From assembly GCF_014195545.1 (NCBI RefSeq), contig NZ_JACIBX010000023.1, forward strand, positions 1 through 35,171: a stretch of DNA of 35,171 nucleotides, written 5' to 3'. A program made the translations under genes and the position numbers. This stretch comes from Limimaricola variabilis. GTDB taxonomy: Bacteria > Pseudomonadota > Alphaproteobacteria > Rhodobacterales > Rhodobacteraceae. The notes beneath the pieces are model-generated. The model was not told the origin of the DNA. It saw only the letters and a list, made by a program, of their open reading frames with translations, and did no database searches. Shown one piece after another: positions 1,394-10,129 of the stretch; positions within the stretch are counted from its first letter, which is position 1, and the number at the start of each line of letters is the position of its first letter.

Positions 1394-1419
1394 GGAACCT
1401 GCCTAGGCGTGCAATGGTT
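1394..1419 (+). promoter_or_regulatory. EcfG-type promoter of otsBA
   Basis: GGAAC at 1394-1398 is followed after 17 bases by GGTT at 1416-1419. This matches the general stress sigma factor promoter pattern of alphaproteobacteria (GGAAC, 16-17 bases, C/G-GTT). The predicted transcript start is near 1426, giving a leader of about 68 bases before otsB. Trehalose genes are known members of EcfG regulons, and ecfG itself lies at 5990-6547. The leader also holds a small inverted repeat (GGCCC/GGGCC, 1461-1474). Confidence 0.6.
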
Positions 1420-1493: not shown

Positions 1494-2276
1494 ATGTACT
1501 ACGAGATGATCGGCTTTCACGGTGAACACCAAAGCGAGCACACCGCCGATGGCGTGCCGGAGCCGAAGCTCGACCGCTCGACATTGTTTCTCGACTTCGA
1601 CGGCACGCTGGTCGATCTGGCGCCGCGGCCCGATGCGATCGAGGTCGATCCCGGTCTTGGCGACCTGCTTCGCTCCCTTTCCGAGCGGACCGAGGGCCGG
1701 GTGGTGATCATCACCGGCCGCGCGATCGAGGACGTGACGCAGTATCTGCAAGGCTTCGACGGCCCGATCATCGGCGGCCACGGCGCGCAGGAGCGGATCG
1801 AGGGTGAGATCCGCAACCACGAGTTGGCCAACCCCGAGACCGTCAAGCGACTGGGCGAAATGACCACTGCCTTTGCGGCGACCCATCCGGGGCTGATCTG
1901 CGAACAGAAACCCACCGGCGTCGTGCTGCATTTCCGCCAGAACGAGGATCTCGCCTCGCAGGCCTATGCCTTCCTGCGGGCCCTGTCGGAAACCCATGAA
2001 GGCTTCGACCTGCACCATTCCAAGATGGCCTATGAGCTTCGCCCGCAGGGCATCGGCAAGGACGTGTCGATGAAGCGGCTGATGGAGAGCGAGAAGTTCA
2101 AGGGCACCATGCCGATCTTCTTCGGTGACGACGTGACCGACGAGCCGGCGCTGCATTGGGTGGCCGAGCAGGGCGGCATCGCCGTCAAGGTTGGCGAGGG
2201 CGAAACCGCTGCCGGTTGCCGGCTGGGGGATCCGCAGGCGGCGCGGAGGACGTTGCGGCGTTGGGTCGAGGCCTGA
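1494..2276 (+). CDS. otsB: Trehalose-6-phosphate phosphatase
   Basis: The protein (260 residues) removes phosphate from trehalose 6-phosphate to give trehalose, a compatible solute and stress protectant in the cytoplasm. It is a HAD-superfamily phosphatase: motif I is LFLDFDGTLVDLAP (nucleophile D34, acid/base D36), motif II is VVIITGR, and the C-terminal metal-binding motif is FFGDDVTDE. The GGHGAQ segment is typical of OtsB. The ATG at 1494 has a good ribosome binding site (GGAG, 7 bases away). The stop is only 2 bases before the otsA start, so the two genes are a translationally coupled pair. An EcfG-type promoter lies upstream. Confidence 0.95.
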   Translation: MYYEMIGFHGEHQSEHTADGVPEPKLDRSTLFLDFDGTLVDLAPRPDAIEVDPGLGDLLRSLSERTEGRVVIITGRAIEDVTQYLQGFDGPIIGGHGAQERIEGEIRNHELANPETVKRLGEMTTAFAATHPGLICEQKPTGVVLHFRQNEDLASQAYAFLRALSETHEGFDLHHSKMAYELRPQGIGKDVSMKRLMESEKFKGTMPIFFGDDVTDEPALHWVAEQGGIAVKVGEGETAAGCRLGDPQAARRTLRRWVEA

Positions 2277-2278
2277 GC

Positions 2279-3658
2279 ATGGCTGACGGACGCCTCATCG
2301 TCGTTTCCAACCGTATTCCCACCGAAGAGGCCCCGTCAGGCGGCCTCGTCGTCGCCTTGCACGACGCGCTCAAGGAGCGCGGCGGGGTCTGGATCGGCAA
2401 TTCCGGCAAACGGGTCGCGTCCGAGGAGGCGCAGAAGGGCCTGACCCGGATCGCCGAGACTCCCTATGCTCGCTACAGCTTCGACCTCACCGAAGAGGAA
2501 CATGCGGGCTTCTACCTGGGCTACGCGAACTCCACGCTCTGGCCGCTGTTCCACCACCGTACCGACCTCTTGGCCGTCGATCCCGATCAGGCGCGCATCT
2601 ATCGCGAGGTCAACGACCGCGTGGCGGGGCTGATCGCCGAAGTGGTGCAGCCGGGCGATGCGATCTGGGTGCACGACTACCATTTCCTGCCGTTGGCCGA
2701 GGCGCTTCGCAAACGCGGCGTCGCCAACCGGATCGGCTTCTTCCTGCATATCCCGTTCCCCAACCCCTCCGACATGCCTGCCTTGTCGGAACGCAAGCTG
2801 ATGCCGGGCTGGCTCTCGGCCTTCGACCTGATCGGCCTGCAGACCCGGCGCGACGTGTCCAACGCGCTCGATTTCCTGCGCGACAACGGCGCCGAACTGC
2901 TGCTGCGCGGCAAGATGAAATATGGCGACCGCAGTTTCGAGATCGCGAGCTACCCGATCGGCATCGATGTCGATGCCTTCGTGCGCGCCGCCGAGGAACA
3001 CGCGGATTCCGGCGAGCATCTGCGCTTGTCGCCGGGCGAACGGCTCGTGCTCGGGGTCGACCGGCTCGATTATTCCAAGGGACTGCCGCAGCGCTTTGCG
3101 GCCTTCGGCGAATACTTGTCGAACCGCCCCGATCCCAAGATCCGCGCCACCCTGCTGCAGATCGCGCCGCCCTCGCGCGAAGATGTCGAGGCCTACAAGG
3201 AGATCCGCCAGGAACTCGAGACCATCACCGGCCGCGTCAACGGCGAGATGGCAGAGCTCGACTGGACACCGATCCGCTACATCCGCCGCAACATCCAGCG
3301 CGACATCCTGGCGGGGCTCTATCGACGTGCCGACGCCTGCCTGGTGACGCCGCTGGCCGACGGAATGAACCTCGTCGCCAAGGAATTCGTCGCCGCGCAG
3401 GATGGATCCGATCCCGGTGTGCTGATCCTGTCGCATTTCGCCGGAGCGGCGGAGCAGATGGAAGCGGCGCTGATGGTGAACCCCTATGATCCGGGCGAGA
3501 CCGCTCGCGCGATCGAGCAGGCGCTGTCGATGCCCCTGCACGAGCGTCAGGCCCGTCATCTGAGCCTGATGCAGACCATCCGCGCCACCGATATCGGCTG
3601 GTGGACGCGCACCTATCTTTCGGCGCTTCTGCAGCGCGAGGAGAAGGCGTCGCACTGA
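2279..3658 (+). CDS. otsA: Trehalose-6-phosphate synthase
   Basis: This 459-residue GT20 glycosyltransferase makes trehalose 6-phosphate from a nucleoside-diphosphate glucose and glucose 6-phosphate in the cytoplasm; OtsB then removes the phosphate. Family signatures are the N-terminal LIVVSNRIP and SGGLVVAL, VWVHDYHFLPLA, FFLHIPFPNPS, DRLDYSKGLPQRF for donor phosphate binding, and the C-terminal DGMNLVAKEFVAAQ. The frame is open further upstream inside otsB, but the ATG at 2279, giving MADGRLIVVSNR, matches the family start and sits 2 bases after the otsB stop. Synthesis and phosphatase are thus encoded as a compact otsB-otsA operon, probably induced by the general stress response. Confidence 0.96.
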   Translation: MADGRLIVVSNRIPTEEAPSGGLVVALHDALKERGGVWIGNSGKRVASEEAQKGLTRIAETPYARYSFDLTEEEHAGFYLGYANSTLWPLFHHRTDLLAVDPDQARIYREVNDRVAGLIAEVVQPGDAIWVHDYHFLPLAEALRKRGVANRIGFFLHIPFPNPSDMPALSERKLMPGWLSAFDLIGLQTRRDVSNALDFLRDNGAELLLRGKMKYGDRSFEIASYPIGIDVDAFVRAAEEHADSGEHLRLSPGERLVLGVDRLDYSKGLPQRFAAFGEYLSNRPDPKIRATLLQIAPPSREDVEAYKEIRQELETITGRVNGEMAELDWTPIRYIRRNIQRDILAGLYRRADACLVTPLADGMNLVAKEFVAAQDGSDPGVLILSHFAGAAEQMEAALMVNPYDPGETARAIEQALSMPLHERQARHLSLMQTIRATDIGWWTRTYLSALLQREEKASH

Positions 3659-3681
3659 TTTTCAAGCGGCACATTTTTTCG

Positions 3682-3706
3682 GGAACCTTGGACGGCGAGA
3701 CGGGTT
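3682..3706 (+). promoter_or_regulatory. EcfG-type promoter after otsA
   Basis: GGAAC at 3682-3686 is followed after 16 bases by GGTT at 3703-3706, the general stress sigma factor pattern. The predicted transcript start is about 3712-3714. The next annotated coding start is at 3894, but a very stable hairpin (3752-3804) lies between. The promoter could therefore drive a short RNA, the YihY gene with a long structured leader, or both. Confidence 0.5.
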
Positions 3707-3712
3707 GGATGG

Positions 3713-3804
3713 AAGAAGAGGCGCCGTTCCCTCGCCTCTCTCATTCCCCAAGGCCGGCGGCCGCTGCTCCTGATCATTCCCTCGGGGAGCAGCGACCGCC
3801 GGCC
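3713..3804 (+). ncRNA. Candidate stress-induced small RNA with C-rich loops
   Basis: An RNA starting at the predicted EcfG promoter would be about 92 bases long. It would contain a first hairpin (3717-3739, 7 base pairs, loop CCGTTCCCT), a single-stranded linker with ATTCCCC, and a long second hairpin (3752-3804, loop TGATCATTCCCTCGG). The loops share TTCCCT and the linker carries TTCCCC, a pattern seen in alphaproteobacterial small RNAs that pair with ribosome binding sites through C-rich loops. No convincing reading frame fills the space. Promoter, hairpins and repeated motif are seen; the existence of a discrete RNA is inferred. The alternative is an otsA terminator plus a YihY leader. Confidence 0.35.
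3752..3804 (+). terminator. Long stable hairpin downstream of otsA
   Basis: Arms 3752-3770 and 3786-3804 are 19 bases each and complementary with a single mismatch, closing a 15-base loop that contains a TGATCA palindrome. No T run follows. It lies 93 bases after the otsA stop and would end the otsBA transcript, the candidate small RNA, or both. Confidence 0.6.
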
Positions 3805-3868
3805 ACCCCATTTCCCCGGCACACTTCACAACTTCCGGCTGCCATGCCATCTTCGCCGTGAGCGAAAT

Positions 3869-3888
3869 TCCGCTCGGATAGAGCGGAG
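3869..3888 (+). promoter_or_regulatory. Hairpin covering the YihY ribosome binding site
   Basis: TCCGCTC (3869-3875) pairs with GAGCGGA (3881-3887) around a 5-base loop, with a possible extra wobble pair. The right arm contains most of the GGAG ribosome binding site (3885-3888) that precedes the ATG at 3894. Folding would hide the site and could make translation conditional. This is inferred from sequence only. Confidence 0.35.
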
Positions 3889-3893
3889 CCCGC

Positions 3894-4805
3894 ATGCCCA
3901 TTCTTTCGGCCCGGACGCGCCTGACCTTTCGCCGGTTCATAAAGTTGCTGGGAGGGTTGTGGACGTTGGCCGGCGACGTGCAGTTGGGGCTGATCGCGGC
4001 GGGTGTCGCCTTCTATTCGATCTTTGCCATCTTCCCCGCGATCGCGGCGCTGATCGCGGTATTCGGCCTTCTCGCCGACCCCACGGTCATCGAGGCGCAG
4101 CTCGAACTGATGCACGAGATTATTCCCGTCGAGGCCTATGGCCTGTTGCGCGACCAGCTCAACCTGATGCTGGCGACGCGGCCGGAGACACTGGGCTTCG
4201 CGACGATCCTTTCGACGCTGGTGGCGTTGTTCTCGGCCCGCAACGGCGTGGCCTCGCTGATCCTTGGGCTGAACCAGATCTATGGCCGTCCCAACCGCAA
4301 CGGGGTGCGACAGATCCTCGTGGCGCTGTTGCTGACCGTGTCGCTGATCGCGATCGCCGTCCTAGCCATGCTGGTGGTGGTGATCGCGCCGATCCTGCTG
4401 GCAGTGCTGCCCCTCGGCCTGCGGGTCGGCTGGGCGCTCGAGGCGGTGCGCTGGATCGCGGCCTTCGGGGTGGTGCTGGCCGGGCTCGGGGTGATCTACC
4501 GCTTCGGGCCGAACACGCGCGGCATGCGCGGTCGCTGGATCACGCCGGGCGCCTTCCTCGTGATCCTGTTCTGGCTCGCCGCCTCGGCCGGGTTTTCCTA
4601 CTACCTATCGCATTTCGGCAAATACAACGAGGTCTACGGCTCCATCGGCGCCGTGGTGGCGCTGCTGATGTGGCTCTATATCTCGGCTTGGCTGGTGCTG
4701 CTGGGCGCGGCTGTCAACGTGGTCTGGGCGCGCGTGCTGCGCGCCGAGACGCCGTCACGGCCGCAGCCCTCTCCGATCGAACATCGGCCGATCCGGATCG
4801 GATGA
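3894..4805 (+). CDS. YihY/BrkB family inner-membrane protein
   Basis: This 303-residue multi-pass membrane protein has about six hydrophobic segments (roughly residues 34-60, 100-125, 140-170, 180-205, 220-245 and 250-280). Family signatures are the first-helix GVAFYSIFAIFPAI and the downstream ARNGVASLILGLNQIYGRP, SLIAIAV and YGSIGAVVALLMWLYISA segments. It was once called ribonuclease BN by mistake; the family's function in the inner membrane is not settled. The ATG at 3894 has a GGAG site 5 bases away, partly buried in a hairpin. It follows an EcfG-type promoter and converges with phyR, so a link to envelope stress is possible but unproven. Confidence 0.9.
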   Translation: MPILSARTRLTFRRFIKLLGGLWTLAGDVQLGLIAAGVAFYSIFAIFPAIAALIAVFGLLADPTVIEAQLELMHEIIPVEAYGLLRDQLNLMLATRPETLGFATILSTLVALFSARNGVASLILGLNQIYGRPNRNGVRQILVALLLTVSLIAIAVLAMLVVVIAPILLAVLPLGLRVGWALEAVRWIAAFGVVLAGLGVIYRFGPNTRGMRGRWITPGAFLVILFWLAASAGFSYYLSHFGKYNEVYGSIGAVVALLMWLYISAWLVLLGAAVNVVWARVLRAETPSRPQPSPIEHRPIRIG

Positions 4806-4842: not shown

Positions 4843-5655
4843 TCAGCCGTGCAGCGGACCGGTCGAGGAGAAGAACATCGCCTGGCTGACCGCCGAACGC
4901 ACCTGCTCTTCGCCGTAGGGCTTGGAGATCAGGAAGGCCGGCTCGGGGCGCTCGCCCGTCAGCAGTCGCTCGGGGAAGGCGGTGATGAAGATCACCGGCA
5001 GGTTGCCATGCGCCTCGAGGATGTCGCGCACCGCGTCGATGCCCGAGGAGTTGTCGGCCAGCTGAATGTCGGCCAGCACGAGGTCGGGCTTCTCCTGCTG
5101 GGCGAGCTTGACCGCGTCGTCGCGGGTCCGCGCGACGCCGGTGATGGCGTGACCCATGTCGGAGACGATCGACTGCAGGTCCATGGCGATGATCGCCTCG
5201 TCCTCGATGACCAGGATCCGGCCCGAGATGCTGTCTTCCATCTCCTGCCGGGCGATCTTCACCAGATGCTCGACCTCGTCGATGTCGATCTGCATGATCT
5301 CGGCGATCTCCTCGCTGGAGAAATCCTCGATCGTGTGGAGAAGCAGCGCCTCGCGGGTGTTCGGGGTCAGCTTGGCGAGATGCGCCTGCGCCGCGGCGGC
5401 GAGGCCGCTTTCGTCACCCGAGACGGGCGCGCCGGAGCTGATCCAGATGGTATGGAACACCCGGAACAGCGCGGTGCGCGGAGAGGCGTCCGTGTCGAAG
5501 ACCGAGCGATCCTCGAGGATCGCCTCGAGCGTCGCCGCGGCATAGGTGTCACCGCTGTTCTGGCTCCCTGTCAGTGCGCGTGCATAGCGGCGCAGGTAGG
5601 GCAGCTCGTGCCCGATCACCGTGGCGAGGTCGGGTGCGGTGGTGGTTGTCGTCAT
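4843..5655 (-). CDS. phyR: PhyR, anti-anti-sigma response regulator of the general stress response
   Basis: The protein (270 residues) has a sigma-factor-like N-terminal domain (about 10-140, with a sigma4-like part including REALLLHTIEDFSSEEIAEI) fused to a receiver domain (about 146-262). In the receiver, acidic residues E151/D152 start the fold (ILVIEDEAIIAMDL), D196 in LVLADIQLAD is the phosphate acceptor, and ITAFPE and AFLISKPY are typical of PhyR-type receivers. Phosphorylated PhyR binds NepR and frees EcfG. The ATG at 5655 gives the usual PhyR length; the frame stays open upstream, but those residues do not resemble the family. It is divergent from nepR-ecfG across 117 bases, and an EcfG-type promoter faces it. 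Confidence 0.95.
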   Translation of the reverse strand: MTTTTTAPDLATVIGHELPYLRRYARALTGSQNSGDTYAAATLEAILEDRSVFDTDASPRTALFRVFHTIWISSGAPVSGDESGLAAAAQAHLAKLTPNTREALLLHTIEDFSSEEIAEIMQIDIDEVEHLVKIARQEMEDSISGRILVIEDEAIIAMDLQSIVSDMGHAITGVARTRDDAVKLAQQEKPDLVLADIQLADNSSGIDAVRDILEAHGNLPVIFITAFPERLLTGERPEPAFLISKPYGEEQVRSAVSQAMFFSSTGPLHG

Positions 5656-5692
5656 CGGCTGAGAGTCCCCAAATTCATTTTTTCTGGAACCG

Positions 5693-5718
5693 AACGTGCC
5701 CATCGGCATTGTGGTTCC
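5693..5718 (-). promoter_or_regulatory. EcfG-type promoter of phyR
   Basis: Read on the minus strand, GGAAC (5718-5714) is followed after 17 bases by CGTT (5696-5693), a full match to the EcfG pattern. The predicted transcript start is about 5686, giving a leader of about 30 bases before the phyR ATG. It implies positive feedback of EcfG on phyR. Facing it, GGAACC at 5686-5691 on the plus strand forms an outer inverted repeat with GGTTCC at 5713-5718, but no GTT box is correctly spaced for the nepR direction. Confidence 0.65.
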
Positions 5719-5772
5719 ATGATGCGGCCATGCTAAGCGAGGCTGCCGATAATGACGAGGGTATAAGCGGGA

Positions 5773-5989: not shown

Positions 5990-6547
5990 ATGAGCCATCA
6001 AGATCCGAGAGATGAACTGGTCGGGCACCTCCCGGCCATGCGAGCCTTTGCGCTGTCGTTGACGCGCAATGGCGCCCAGGCCGACGACCTCGTGCAGGAT
6101 ACGGTGGTCAAGGCTTGGACGAATTTTGACAAGTTCAAGCCGGGGACCAATCTGCGTGCTTGGCTGTTCACCATCCTGCGCAACACCTTCTACTCGGGAC
6201 GCCGCAAGGCGCAGCGCGAAGTGGCCGATGTCGACGGCGTGTTCACCGCGTCGCTGGCGGAAAAGCCCGCGCATGATGGCCGGCTGCAGATGAACGACTT
6301 TCTGCGGGCCTTTGCCCAGCTGCCAGACGAACAGCGCGAGGCGCTTGCGCTGGTCGGCGCGTCCGGCTTCTCCTACGAGGAGGCGGCGGGCATGTGCGGC
6401 GTGGCGATCGGCACGATCAAGAGCCGTGCCAATCGCGCAAGGGTGCGCCTCGCAGAGCTGCTCGAGCTCGAGGACGAAGACGGGCTCGGGATGACCGACG
6501 AGGCGACGATGGCGGTGCTGGCAGCCCATGGTGGGCCGCACTTGTGA
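5990..6547 (+). CDS. ecfG: EcfG, general stress response sigma factor
   Basis: This 185-residue ECF sigma factor directs RNA polymerase to GGAAC/C-or-G-GTT promoters. Region 2 lies at about residues 12-75 (DDLVQDTVVKAWTNFDKF, then LRAWLFTILRN). Region 4 lies at about 105-160 (LPDEQREALALVGASGFSYE, then GTIKSRANRARVRLAELL). The ATG at 5990 follows AGGGG. The frame is open further upstream through nepR, but those residues are not sigma-like. The stop overlaps the GTG start of the next gene, a histidine kinase. The neighbours phyR and nepR make the assignment to the EcfG group firm. Confidence 0.95.
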   Translation: MSHQDPRDELVGHLPAMRAFALSLTRNGAQADDLVQDTVVKAWTNFDKFKPGTNLRAWLFTILRNTFYSGRRKAQREVADVDGVFTASLAEKPAHDGRLQMNDFLRAFAQLPDEQREALALVGASGFSYEEAAGMCGVAIGTIKSRANRARVRLAELLELEDEDGLGMTDEATMAVLAAHGGPHL

Positions 6548-9986: not shown

Positions 9987-10011
9987 GGAACCTCACAGCG
10001 TAGGCCGCGTT
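9987..10011 (+). promoter_or_regulatory. EcfG-type promoter of a small membrane protein gene
   Basis: GGAAC at 9987-9991 is followed after 16 bases by CGTT at 10008-10011, a full match to the EcfG pattern. The predicted transcript start is about 10018, 25 bases before the ATG at 10043. The sites, spacing and following ribosome binding site form a complete short gene start. Read-through could also reach clpP, but a strong hairpin intervenes. Confidence 0.62.
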
Positions 10012-10042: not shown

Positions 10043-10129
10043 ATGACCATCGCTGCGATGGTGGCCGCCCTTGCGGGTCTGGTGGTGGTTGCGTTCCTGA
10101 TCTTCGTGCTGACTGGCGGAGACGACTGA
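10043..10129 (+). CDS. 28-residue single-span membrane microprotein, probably stress-induced
   Basis: The reading frame encodes 28 residues: a short start (MTIAAMVAALAG), a continuous hydrophobic stretch (about residues 3-23) forming one membrane helix, and a short acidic end (TGGDD). A good ribosome binding site (GAGAGGA) lies 4 bases before the ATG, and an EcfG-type promoter lies just upstream. I recognise no family. Arguments for a real gene are promoter, ribosome binding site, membrane helix and lack of any other gene in the gap. Against it is that so short a frame can arise by chance. Such microproteins often modulate a membrane partner; the partner here is unknown. Confidence 0.55.
   Translation: MTIAAMVAALAGLVVVAFLIFVLTGGDD

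What the first reader, a model, noticed from the sequence alone, without database searches (positions are those of the whole stretch)
3682..3804. Candidate EcfG-driven small RNA with repeated C-rich loops behind otsBA
A GGAAC-N16-GGTT promoter lies 23 bases after the otsA stop. From its expected start, two hairpins follow: 3717-3739, and 3752-3804 with 19-base arms and one mismatch. Their loops share TTCCCT, and the linker between them has TTCCCC. No coding frame fills the space. C-rich loops exposed on stable stems are how several alphaproteobacterial small RNAs, including stress-response ones, pair with purine-rich ribosome binding sites. Promoter, stems and repeats are visible; that they make one RNA is inference.
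Basis: partly seen in the sequence, partly recalled or inferred. Interest (0 to 1): 0.72.

Follow-up and report, generated by a model that had tools for sequence, protein, structure and literature searches.

The report
Stress-response small RNA in marine bacteria
Next to the master stress-response genes of a marine bacterium lies a short stretch that looks like a real regulatory RNA: its hairpins are kept by matched mutations in relatives while its exposed C-rich loops stay the same, so it probably tunes other genes under stress, though nobody has yet shown that it is made.

Summary
Promoter GGAAC-N16-NGTT, hairpin 1 (loop CCGUUCCCU), a UUCCCC linker and hairpin 2 (loop with AUUCCCUC) recur in 8 of 8 Limimaricola genomes and in Pseudoroseicyclus aestuarii, between otsA and yihY in 9 of 9 and beside phyR wherever the fetched DNA reaches it (7 of 9). 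The promoter elements and RNA body are conserved; the flanks are not. Ten base pairs change on both sides (0 of 500 shuffles); in P. aestuarii the inner part of hairpin 2 is rewritten while its loop is kept. Rfam has no match. Around phyR in some other Rhodobacteraceae, EcfG-like promoters precede unrelated hairpins with C-rich loops; in one, the next gene is convergent. Best reading: an EcfG-dependent trans-acting sRNA of about 95 nt that works like Caulobacter GsrN, pairing C-rich loops with G-rich leaders. GsrN or cuckoo membership is not claimed: homology was not shown, no U-run terminator was found, CCUCCUCCC is absent. No transcript, 3' end or target is shown; a structured yihY leader remains the main rival.

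The parts
3682..3686 (+). GGAAC, -35 element of an EcfG-type promoter
   Evidence: sequence; invariant in 8 of 8 Limimaricola sequences and present in P. aestuarii
3703..3706 (+). GGTT, -10 element, N16 after GGAAC
   Evidence: N16-NGTT in 9 of 9 homologues; none has the strict CGTT
3712..3809 (+). predicted RNA body, about 95 nt (start inferred from promoter spacing, end inferred from where conservation stops)
   Evidence: mean pairwise column identity 0.96 (hairpin 1), 0.93 (linker), 0.87 (hairpin 2), 0.95 (tail), then 0.38 in 3810-3823
3717..3739 (+). hairpin 1, 7-bp stem
   Evidence: one pair found as GC, AU and GU (alignment columns 15-29)
3724..3732 (+). loop 1, CCGUUCCCU, invariant in Limimaricola, likely pairing loop
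   Evidence: identity 1.0; UUCCCU unpaired probability 0.85-1.0 in the window, 0.80-1.0 in P. aestuarii
3741..3751 (+). linker with AUUCCCC, partly paired in single-sequence folds
   Evidence: identity 0.93
3752..3804 (+). hairpin 2, 19-bp arms
   Evidence: 9 of its 20 counted pairs have a change on both sides
3771..3785 (+). loop 2 with AUUCCCUC
   Evidence: identity 0.95; AUCAUUCCCUCGG kept in P. aestuarii although the inner stem differs
3824..3848 (+). separate conserved element TTCACAAC...CATGC between RNA and yihY, perhaps part of yihY's own promoter
   Evidence: identity 0.93 and 0.85 between variable stretches; the sigma-70 scan reports no promoter here
2276..3658 (+). otsA, upstream neighbour
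   Evidence: PF00982, E 1.6e-107; same neighbour in 8 of 8 named homologous loci
3894..4805 (+). YihY/BrkB membrane protein, downstream neighbour
   Evidence: PF03631, E 8.6e-57; same neighbour in 8 of 8 named homologous loci
4843..5763 (-). phyR, stretch scanned (the true start is probably near 5655)
   Evidence: PF22029 E 1.6e-27, PF00072
5773..5988 (+). nepR-like small ORF
   Evidence: read from sequence; tblastn matches beside ecfG in relatives
5990..6547 (+). ecfG sigma factor
   Evidence: PF04542, PF08281

Best explanation
A small trans-acting RNA gene of the general stress response. When stress frees the sigma factor EcfG, encoded about 2 kb away, it starts transcription at about 3712-3715 from GGAAC-N16-GGTT. 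The RNA of about 95 nt folds into a short and a long hairpin that hold short C-rich single strands (CCGUUCCCU and AUUCCCUC, perhaps also the AUUCCCC linker) in the open. These pair with G-rich stretches, typically Shine-Dalgarno regions or leaders of several mRNAs, and so change their translation or stability. Shown here: promoter motif, predicted structure, covariation, synteny, conserved loops. Inferred: transcription, EcfG dependence, ends, pairing, targets.
For: Conserved in 8 of 8 Limimaricola genomes and in P. aestuarii (52.4 bits, E 7.9e-8), with the order otsB-otsA-RNA-yihY in 9 of 9 (window; eight named loci). Covariation on 8 distinct rows: 97.2% of cells paired, 10 pairs and 19 cells changed on both sides, 0 of 500 shuffles for every measure, slid structures 43-57% paired (this alignment is fitted to the structure). 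An alignment made without the structure (A4, 8 rows) already shows 6 doubly changed pairs of 32. GGAAC-N16-NGTT in 9 of 9. Sharp drop in conservation at 3810. In another Rhodobacteraceae genome (L066) an EcfG-like promoter and a C-rich-loop hairpin are followed by a convergent CRP-family gene, so there the RNA is not that gene's leader. L112 and five congeners keep two hairpins with C-rich boxes. Precedent: GsrN (PMC5869019).
Against: No transcript data. No intrinsic terminator found at 3600-4000, so the 3' end is unexplained. The -10 never matches strict CGTT. All nine direct homologues lie upstream of yihY in the same direction. Direct homologues were found only in Limimaricola and Pseudoroseicyclus: 2 of 295 family genomes (the own genome and one congener) and 1 of 385 class genomes (the own one) match (strict filters, few candidates scored per genome). 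Targets are unproven, and the telA candidate is weak.
Confidence: 0.66

Rival explanations
1. The hairpins are the 5' leader of an EcfG-driven yihY mRNA and act in cis, for example on mRNA stability or translation of YihY, possibly also releasing a leader-derived small RNA.
For: yihY follows in the same direction in 9 of 9 direct homologues with no terminator found between in the window. In L077 an EcfG-like promoter and a C-rich-loop hairpin also precede yihY.
Against: Conservation collapses at 3810-3823 and is low from 3849 to the start codon (0.38 and 0.57), with a separate conserved box between. Analogous hairpins elsewhere precede other genes or a convergent gene (L054, L066, L112). Pairing of the hairpins with the yihY start was not tested.
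Confidence: 0.2
2. A structured RNA from this promoter that works by binding or sequestering a protein (RNA chaperone or RNase) rather than by base pairing.
For: Two stable hairpins with the same short loop motif, as in protein-titrating RNAs (inference).
Against: C-rich loops of constant sequence on variable stems fit the antisense RNAs GsrN and alpha-r14 (passages of PMC5869019 and PMC10746234). No protein partner was tested.
Confidence: 0.07
3. Only a transcription-end or mRNA-stabilising element of otsBA, or a chance palindrome.
For: Hairpin 1 begins 58 bases after the otsA stop; long GC hairpin.
Against: No T-run; loop sequences and a promoter are conserved, the loops more than the long stem, which a terminator does not need.
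Confidence: 0.05
4. A small protein gene (MEEEAPFPRLSHSP... frame).
For: A frame of 86 codons crosses the region; four of the seven congeners have ATG at the same place.
Against: 1-base indels in the linker and in the 3' arm of hairpin 2 and a 2-base indel in loop 2 between species, no start codon at the same place in G002 and G004, and compensatory changes in the stems.
Confidence: 0.02

Closest known systems
GsrN of Caulobacter crescentus and the proposed GsrN-like RNAs of Rhizobiales (PMC5869019; passages seen)
   Same: EcfG-type promoter; near the phyR-nepR-ecfG locus (typical of Caulobacteraceae homologues, not of C. crescentus itself); about 100 nt; exposed C-rich loop near the 5' end; C-rich loop shown there to pair with the G-rich katG leader
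   Different: Loop CCGUUCCCU rather than six tandem Cs; second long hairpin with the same kind of loop; no T-run terminator found; no sequence relation shown; no transcript or target data. The paper reports BLASTN hits to GsrN only in Caulobacteraceae, and 'Rhodobacter' does not occur in its main text.
alpha-r14 / cuckoo RNAs (NfeR1, CcsR; passages of PMC10746234 and PMC10253847)
   Same: Several hairpins that carry the same C-rich motif in unpaired regions while the stems differ in sequence
   Different: Motif UUCCC(U/C), not CCUCCUCCC (0 matches in the window); EcfG-like rather than RpoH or RpoD promoter; flanked by otsA and yihY, not a DUF1127 gene
RpoE2-dependent sRNAs of Sinorhizobium meliloti (PMC3616915; passages seen)
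   Same: Small RNAs behind EcfG-type promoters: the paper predicts such motifs upstream of 23 sRNAs
   Different: No sequence comparison was made here

Membership tests
GsrN / GsrN-like RNAs | EcfG-type promoter directly upstream | tested here: met
   GGAAC-N16-NGTT in 9 of 9 homologues; the -10 is not strict CGTT
GsrN / GsrN-like RNAs | Proximity to the phyR-nepR-ecfG locus | tested here: met
   RNA end 3809; phyR 4843-, nepR 5773+, ecfG 5990+; phyR seen in 7 of 9 loci, the other two fetched stretches end before it could show
GsrN / GsrN-like RNAs | Exposed C-rich loop near the 5' end | tested here: met
   loop 1 CCGUUCCCU, UUCCCU unpaired probability 0.85-1.0; predicted structure only
GsrN / GsrN-like RNAs | Sequence homology to GsrN | tested here: inconclusive
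   The GsrN sequence was not fetched. Model R1 found only the own genome among 385 class genomes, under strict filters, and GsrN-bearing genomes could not be picked by name.
GsrN / GsrN-like RNAs | Intrinsic terminator at the 3' end | tested here: not met
   0 terminator-like sites in 3600-4000
GsrN / GsrN-like RNAs | Stress-related transcript, cleaved to a stable 5' isoform, stabilised by Hfq | not testable with these tools
   no expression data
alpha-r14 / cuckoo (CcsR) RNAs | CCUCCUCCC motif in the loops | tested here: not met
   0 matches in the window
alpha-r14 / cuckoo (CcsR) RNAs | Association with a DUF1127 gene (CIN1 locus) | tested here: not met
   neighbours are otsA and yihY; none of the 7 window proteins scanned is DUF1127
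alpha-r14 / cuckoo (CcsR) RNAs | RpoH-type (CcsR) or RpoD-type (NfeR1) promoter | not tested
   only an EcfG-like motif and a generic sigma-70 scan were examined
Any Rfam 15 family | Match at the gathering score | tested here: not met
   0 matches in the window; best sub-threshold match 22.7 bits against 60.7 needed, on the minus strand

The most novel reading that the evidence does not exclude
[quoted passage not shown] They would be rapidly diverging or repeatedly re-invented counterparts of GsrN that repress or activate translation of many mRNAs when EcfG is on.
Probability: 0.4. Interest if true: 0.75.

Novelty: new variant of a known kind. Interest (0 to 1): 0.6.

Why it matters
EcfG activates genes; an sRNA would let the same switch also repress or fine-tune mRNAs. 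GsrN shows this for Caulobacter. A 2018 paper states that up to then PhyR's role in stress responses had not been analysed in any member of the Rhodobacterales and found a more specialised role in Rhodobacter sphaeroides (PMC5830050, passages). In the held library no paper holds both Limimaricola and 'small RNA', and none of the 10 papers holding both EcfG and sRNA has a title or opening abstract describing an EcfG-dependent sRNA in this order (listing only). A synteny-anchored locus in named Limimaricola strains, with predicted loops, makes the question directly testable.

Tried and rejected
Rfam, at gathering and permissive thresholds: nothing. The distant BLASTN hit G052/L009 lies inside a 489-aa frame: chance. 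The Rhizobium (L044) and Bacteroidales (L051) hits of the 21-base pattern match the model over 23 and 21 positions at 18.5 and 12.7 bits: chance. Strict three-box pattern in 295 family genomes: 2, the own genome and one congener. Model R1 on 15 loci: besides L050 it finds only L118 (E 0.006), L119 (0.05) and L115 (0.32) at the candidate place; an L075 hit (0.13) is elsewhere; the other ten loci, among them the candidates L054, L066, L077, L112/L114, L116 and L117, give nothing at E up to 1. So homology with the analogues is suggested at most. The L066 RNA was not found in its one congener held (1 of 2 genomes, the own one). The MAFFT alignment of L114-L119 slips in hairpin 1 and gives a poor consensus (2 doubly changed pairs of 16, many broken), so I rely on single folds there. 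The terminator scan of L066 flags only a minus-strand site; a GC hairpin with flanking A and T runs on its plus strand is seen by eye only. The output was cut; one search printed the best 22 of 365 motif sites, and not all others were inspected.

Target search: AGGGAACG or GAGGGAAT up to 16 bases before ATG gives 98 and 94 sites in 8 Limimaricola genomes against 20 and 3 for the reversed patterns, but such patterns are Shine-Dalgarno-like, so the excess needs no sRNA. Only part of the sites was inspected (loci). Best repeated case: telA (TelA, PF05816), present in 7 of 8 genomes. AGGGAACG precedes the start in 5 of those 7; G007 has GGGGAACG and G003 AGGGAACC. Duplex -15.9 to -20.8 kcal/mol, reached by 0.5-22% of single-base shuffles. 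The surrounding sequence is conserved too, so this is weak. P. aestuarii has telA; its leader was not examined.

Full report
WHAT WAS CLAIMED AND WHAT IS THERE. The otsA frame ends at 3658. GGAAC (3682-3686), sixteen bases and GGTT (3703-3706) follow, then a 7-bp hairpin at 3717-3739 and a 19-bp hairpin with one mismatch at 3752-3804. The motif TTCCC(T/C) stands in loop 1, in the linker and in loop 2. The strand folds much better than its shuffles (z -6.6, 0 of 200).

WHERE IT IS. A 21-base pattern from hairpin 1 finds, in the named genome collection, seven Limimaricola records, Pseudoroseicyclus aestuarii and two chance hits. The seven records have the contig lengths of G001-G007, the window's congeners, so the window is from Limimaricola (NCBI: Rhodobacterales, Paracoccaceae); the species was not determined. 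Downstream lie yihY, phyR (minus strand), a nepR-like ORF, ecfG and an HWE-type histidine kinase. So the feature sits at the general-stress-response locus, about 2 kb from nepR-ecfG. In all eight named homologous loci the order is otsB-otsA-RNA-yihY; phyR is seen in six of the eight (plus the window), and the stretches of the other two (L046, L048) end before it could show.

CONSERVATION. 8 of 8 Limimaricola genomes have the locus. Mean pairwise column identity over the eight sequences: 0.44 upstream, 1.0 in GGAAC, 0.50 in the spacer, 0.83 in the -10, 0.62 in 3707-3714, 0.96 in hairpin 1 (loop 1.0), 0.93 in the linker, 0.87 in hairpin 2 (loop 0.95), 0.95 in the tail, 0.38 in 3810-3823. This is the pattern of a promoter followed by an RNA of about 95 nt. 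A second conserved element (TTCACAAC, 0.93; CATGC, 0.85) follows after a variable gap and may belong to yihY's own promoter, but the sigma-70 scan does not report it.

COVARIATION. In an alignment made without structure, 6 of 32 pairs have changes on both sides. With P. aestuarii added (alignment fitted to the model, 8 distinct rows), 97.2% of cells pair, 10 pairs and 19 cells are doubly changed, and 0 of 500 shuffles reach any measure; slid structures pair 43-57%. In hairpin 1 one pair is G-C, A-U or G-U. In P. aestuarii the inner part of hairpin 2 has a different sequence (GGCCGTGTCGTTC / GAACGACACGGCC) around the same AUCAUUCCCUCGG. One- and two-base indels exclude a conserved reading frame. 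The loops are kept most strictly.

PROMOTER. All nine homologues have GGAAC-N16-NGTT. None has the CGTT used as the strict Caulobacter consensus (GGTT 5, AGTT 3, TGTT 1), a point against full certainty. EcfG itself is encoded in the window.

BROADER PICTURE. 192 of 295 family genomes have a PhyR-sigma2 match. I fetched 60 of these phyR regions, taken mostly from the top of the score list and so not a random sample. Among 1017 strand-wise hairpins (at least 12 pairs, both strands counted), 13 lie within 90 nt after a GGAAC-N16/17-NGTT motif; 6 of the 13 have a C-rich loop, against 46 of the 1004 others (Fisher p 1.7e-5). None of the 13 has a G-rich loop. For 89 letter permutations of the motif the mean is 0.24 C-rich hairpins, maximum 2. 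Limits: the C-rich rule was set after one search had shown examples; the permuted motifs occur far less often (mean 41 sites against 393), so per site the rate is about 1.5% against about 0.6%; two of the six (L081, L104) did not convince me by eye and were not tested further. The convincing cases are L054, L066, L077 and L112; L075 was seen but its C-rich hairpin has a shorter stem and is not counted. So at most a handful of the 60 regions show such an RNA near phyR; the rest show none by these rules. In the genus of G222 (locus L112), 6 of 22 genomes including G222 match; all six fold into two hairpins with C-rich boxes, five of them passing the script filter for promoter and C content. Downstream genes differ: yihY (L077), a PLDc_N-like small protein (L112), a DUF2945-like gene (L054) (the last two names are my reading of translations), and in L066 a convergent CRP-family gene (PF00027, PF13545). 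Hence such hairpins are not generally yihY leaders. Model R1 finds three of the L112 group only at the edge of significance, so common descent is unproven.

MECHANISM. The closest understood case is GsrN: SigT(EcfG)-driven, about 100 nt, cytosine-rich 5' loop, pairs with the G-rich leader of katG mRNA and activates KatG expression (PMC5869019, passages). alpha-r14 RNAs show the other parallel: identical C-rich motifs in unpaired regions on stems of differing sequence (PMC10746234, passages). By analogy, CCGUUCCCU and AUUCCCUC would pair with AGGGAACG- or GAGGGAAU-like sites. Such sites are common before ATG in Limimaricola, but so are Shine-Dalgarno sequences; the telA leader is only a weak candidate.

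MEMBERSHIP. GsrN: promoter, position and loop met; intrinsic terminator not met; sequence relation inconclusive; processing and Hfq not testable. Cuckoo/alpha-r14: motif and DUF1127 association not met. Rfam: no family. So it works like these RNAs but is not filed as one of them.

LITERATURE. Ten searches in open-access papers showed no report of this RNA or of an EcfG-dependent sRNA in Rhodobacterales among the titles and opening abstracts listed (one search listed 15 of 71, 15 of 27). Subscription papers are mostly not held and supplements were not read. Of six papers I saw passages, of none the whole text.

VERDICT. A real, conserved, structured element with an EcfG-like promoter, most likely a stress-response sRNA (0.66). 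Transcript and target remain to be shown.

Noticed in passing
window 9987-10011 and 10043-10129 (+): A second good EcfG-like motif (GGAAC-N16-CGTT) precedes a 28-codon frame MTIAAMVAALAGLVVVAFLIFVLTGGDD, a possible stress-induced one-helix membrane peptide before clpP (gene name clpP is my reading).
   Followed up: partly
window 1394-1419 (+): EcfG-like motif GGAAC-N17-GGTT upstream of otsB (start 1494): trehalose synthesis may be in the same regulon.
   Followed up: no
window 3824-3848 (+): Conserved TTCACAAC...CATGC box between the RNA and yihY in the Limimaricola alignment (identity 0.93 and 0.85); function unknown, perhaps a promoter of yihY.
   Followed up: partly
L066 3983-4220 (+), L054 1010-1122 (+), L075 4234-4120 (-), L112 6048-5946 (-), L077 10019-9870 (-): Other Rhodobacteraceae phyR regions with an EcfG-like promoter followed by a hairpin with a C-rich loop; not clearly related in sequence to the window's RNA.
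   Followed up: partly
L103 9976-10026: Just after yihY and before a convergent gene, a hairpin of 17 pairs whose loop CCGTTCCCTCGGGAA contains the Limimaricola loop-1 sequence; probably a two-way terminator, no EcfG-like motif within 90 nt upstream.
   Followed up: no
telA leaders, L204-L210: Shine-Dalgarno region AGGGAACGAG of telA is complementary to loop 1; 5 of 7 telA genes keep AGGGAACG.
   Followed up: partly
60 phyR regions L054-L113: GGAAC-N16/17-NGTT occurs 393 times against a mean of 41 (maximum 116) for 89 letter permutations: the phyR surroundings seem dense in EcfG-like promoters.
   Followed up: no
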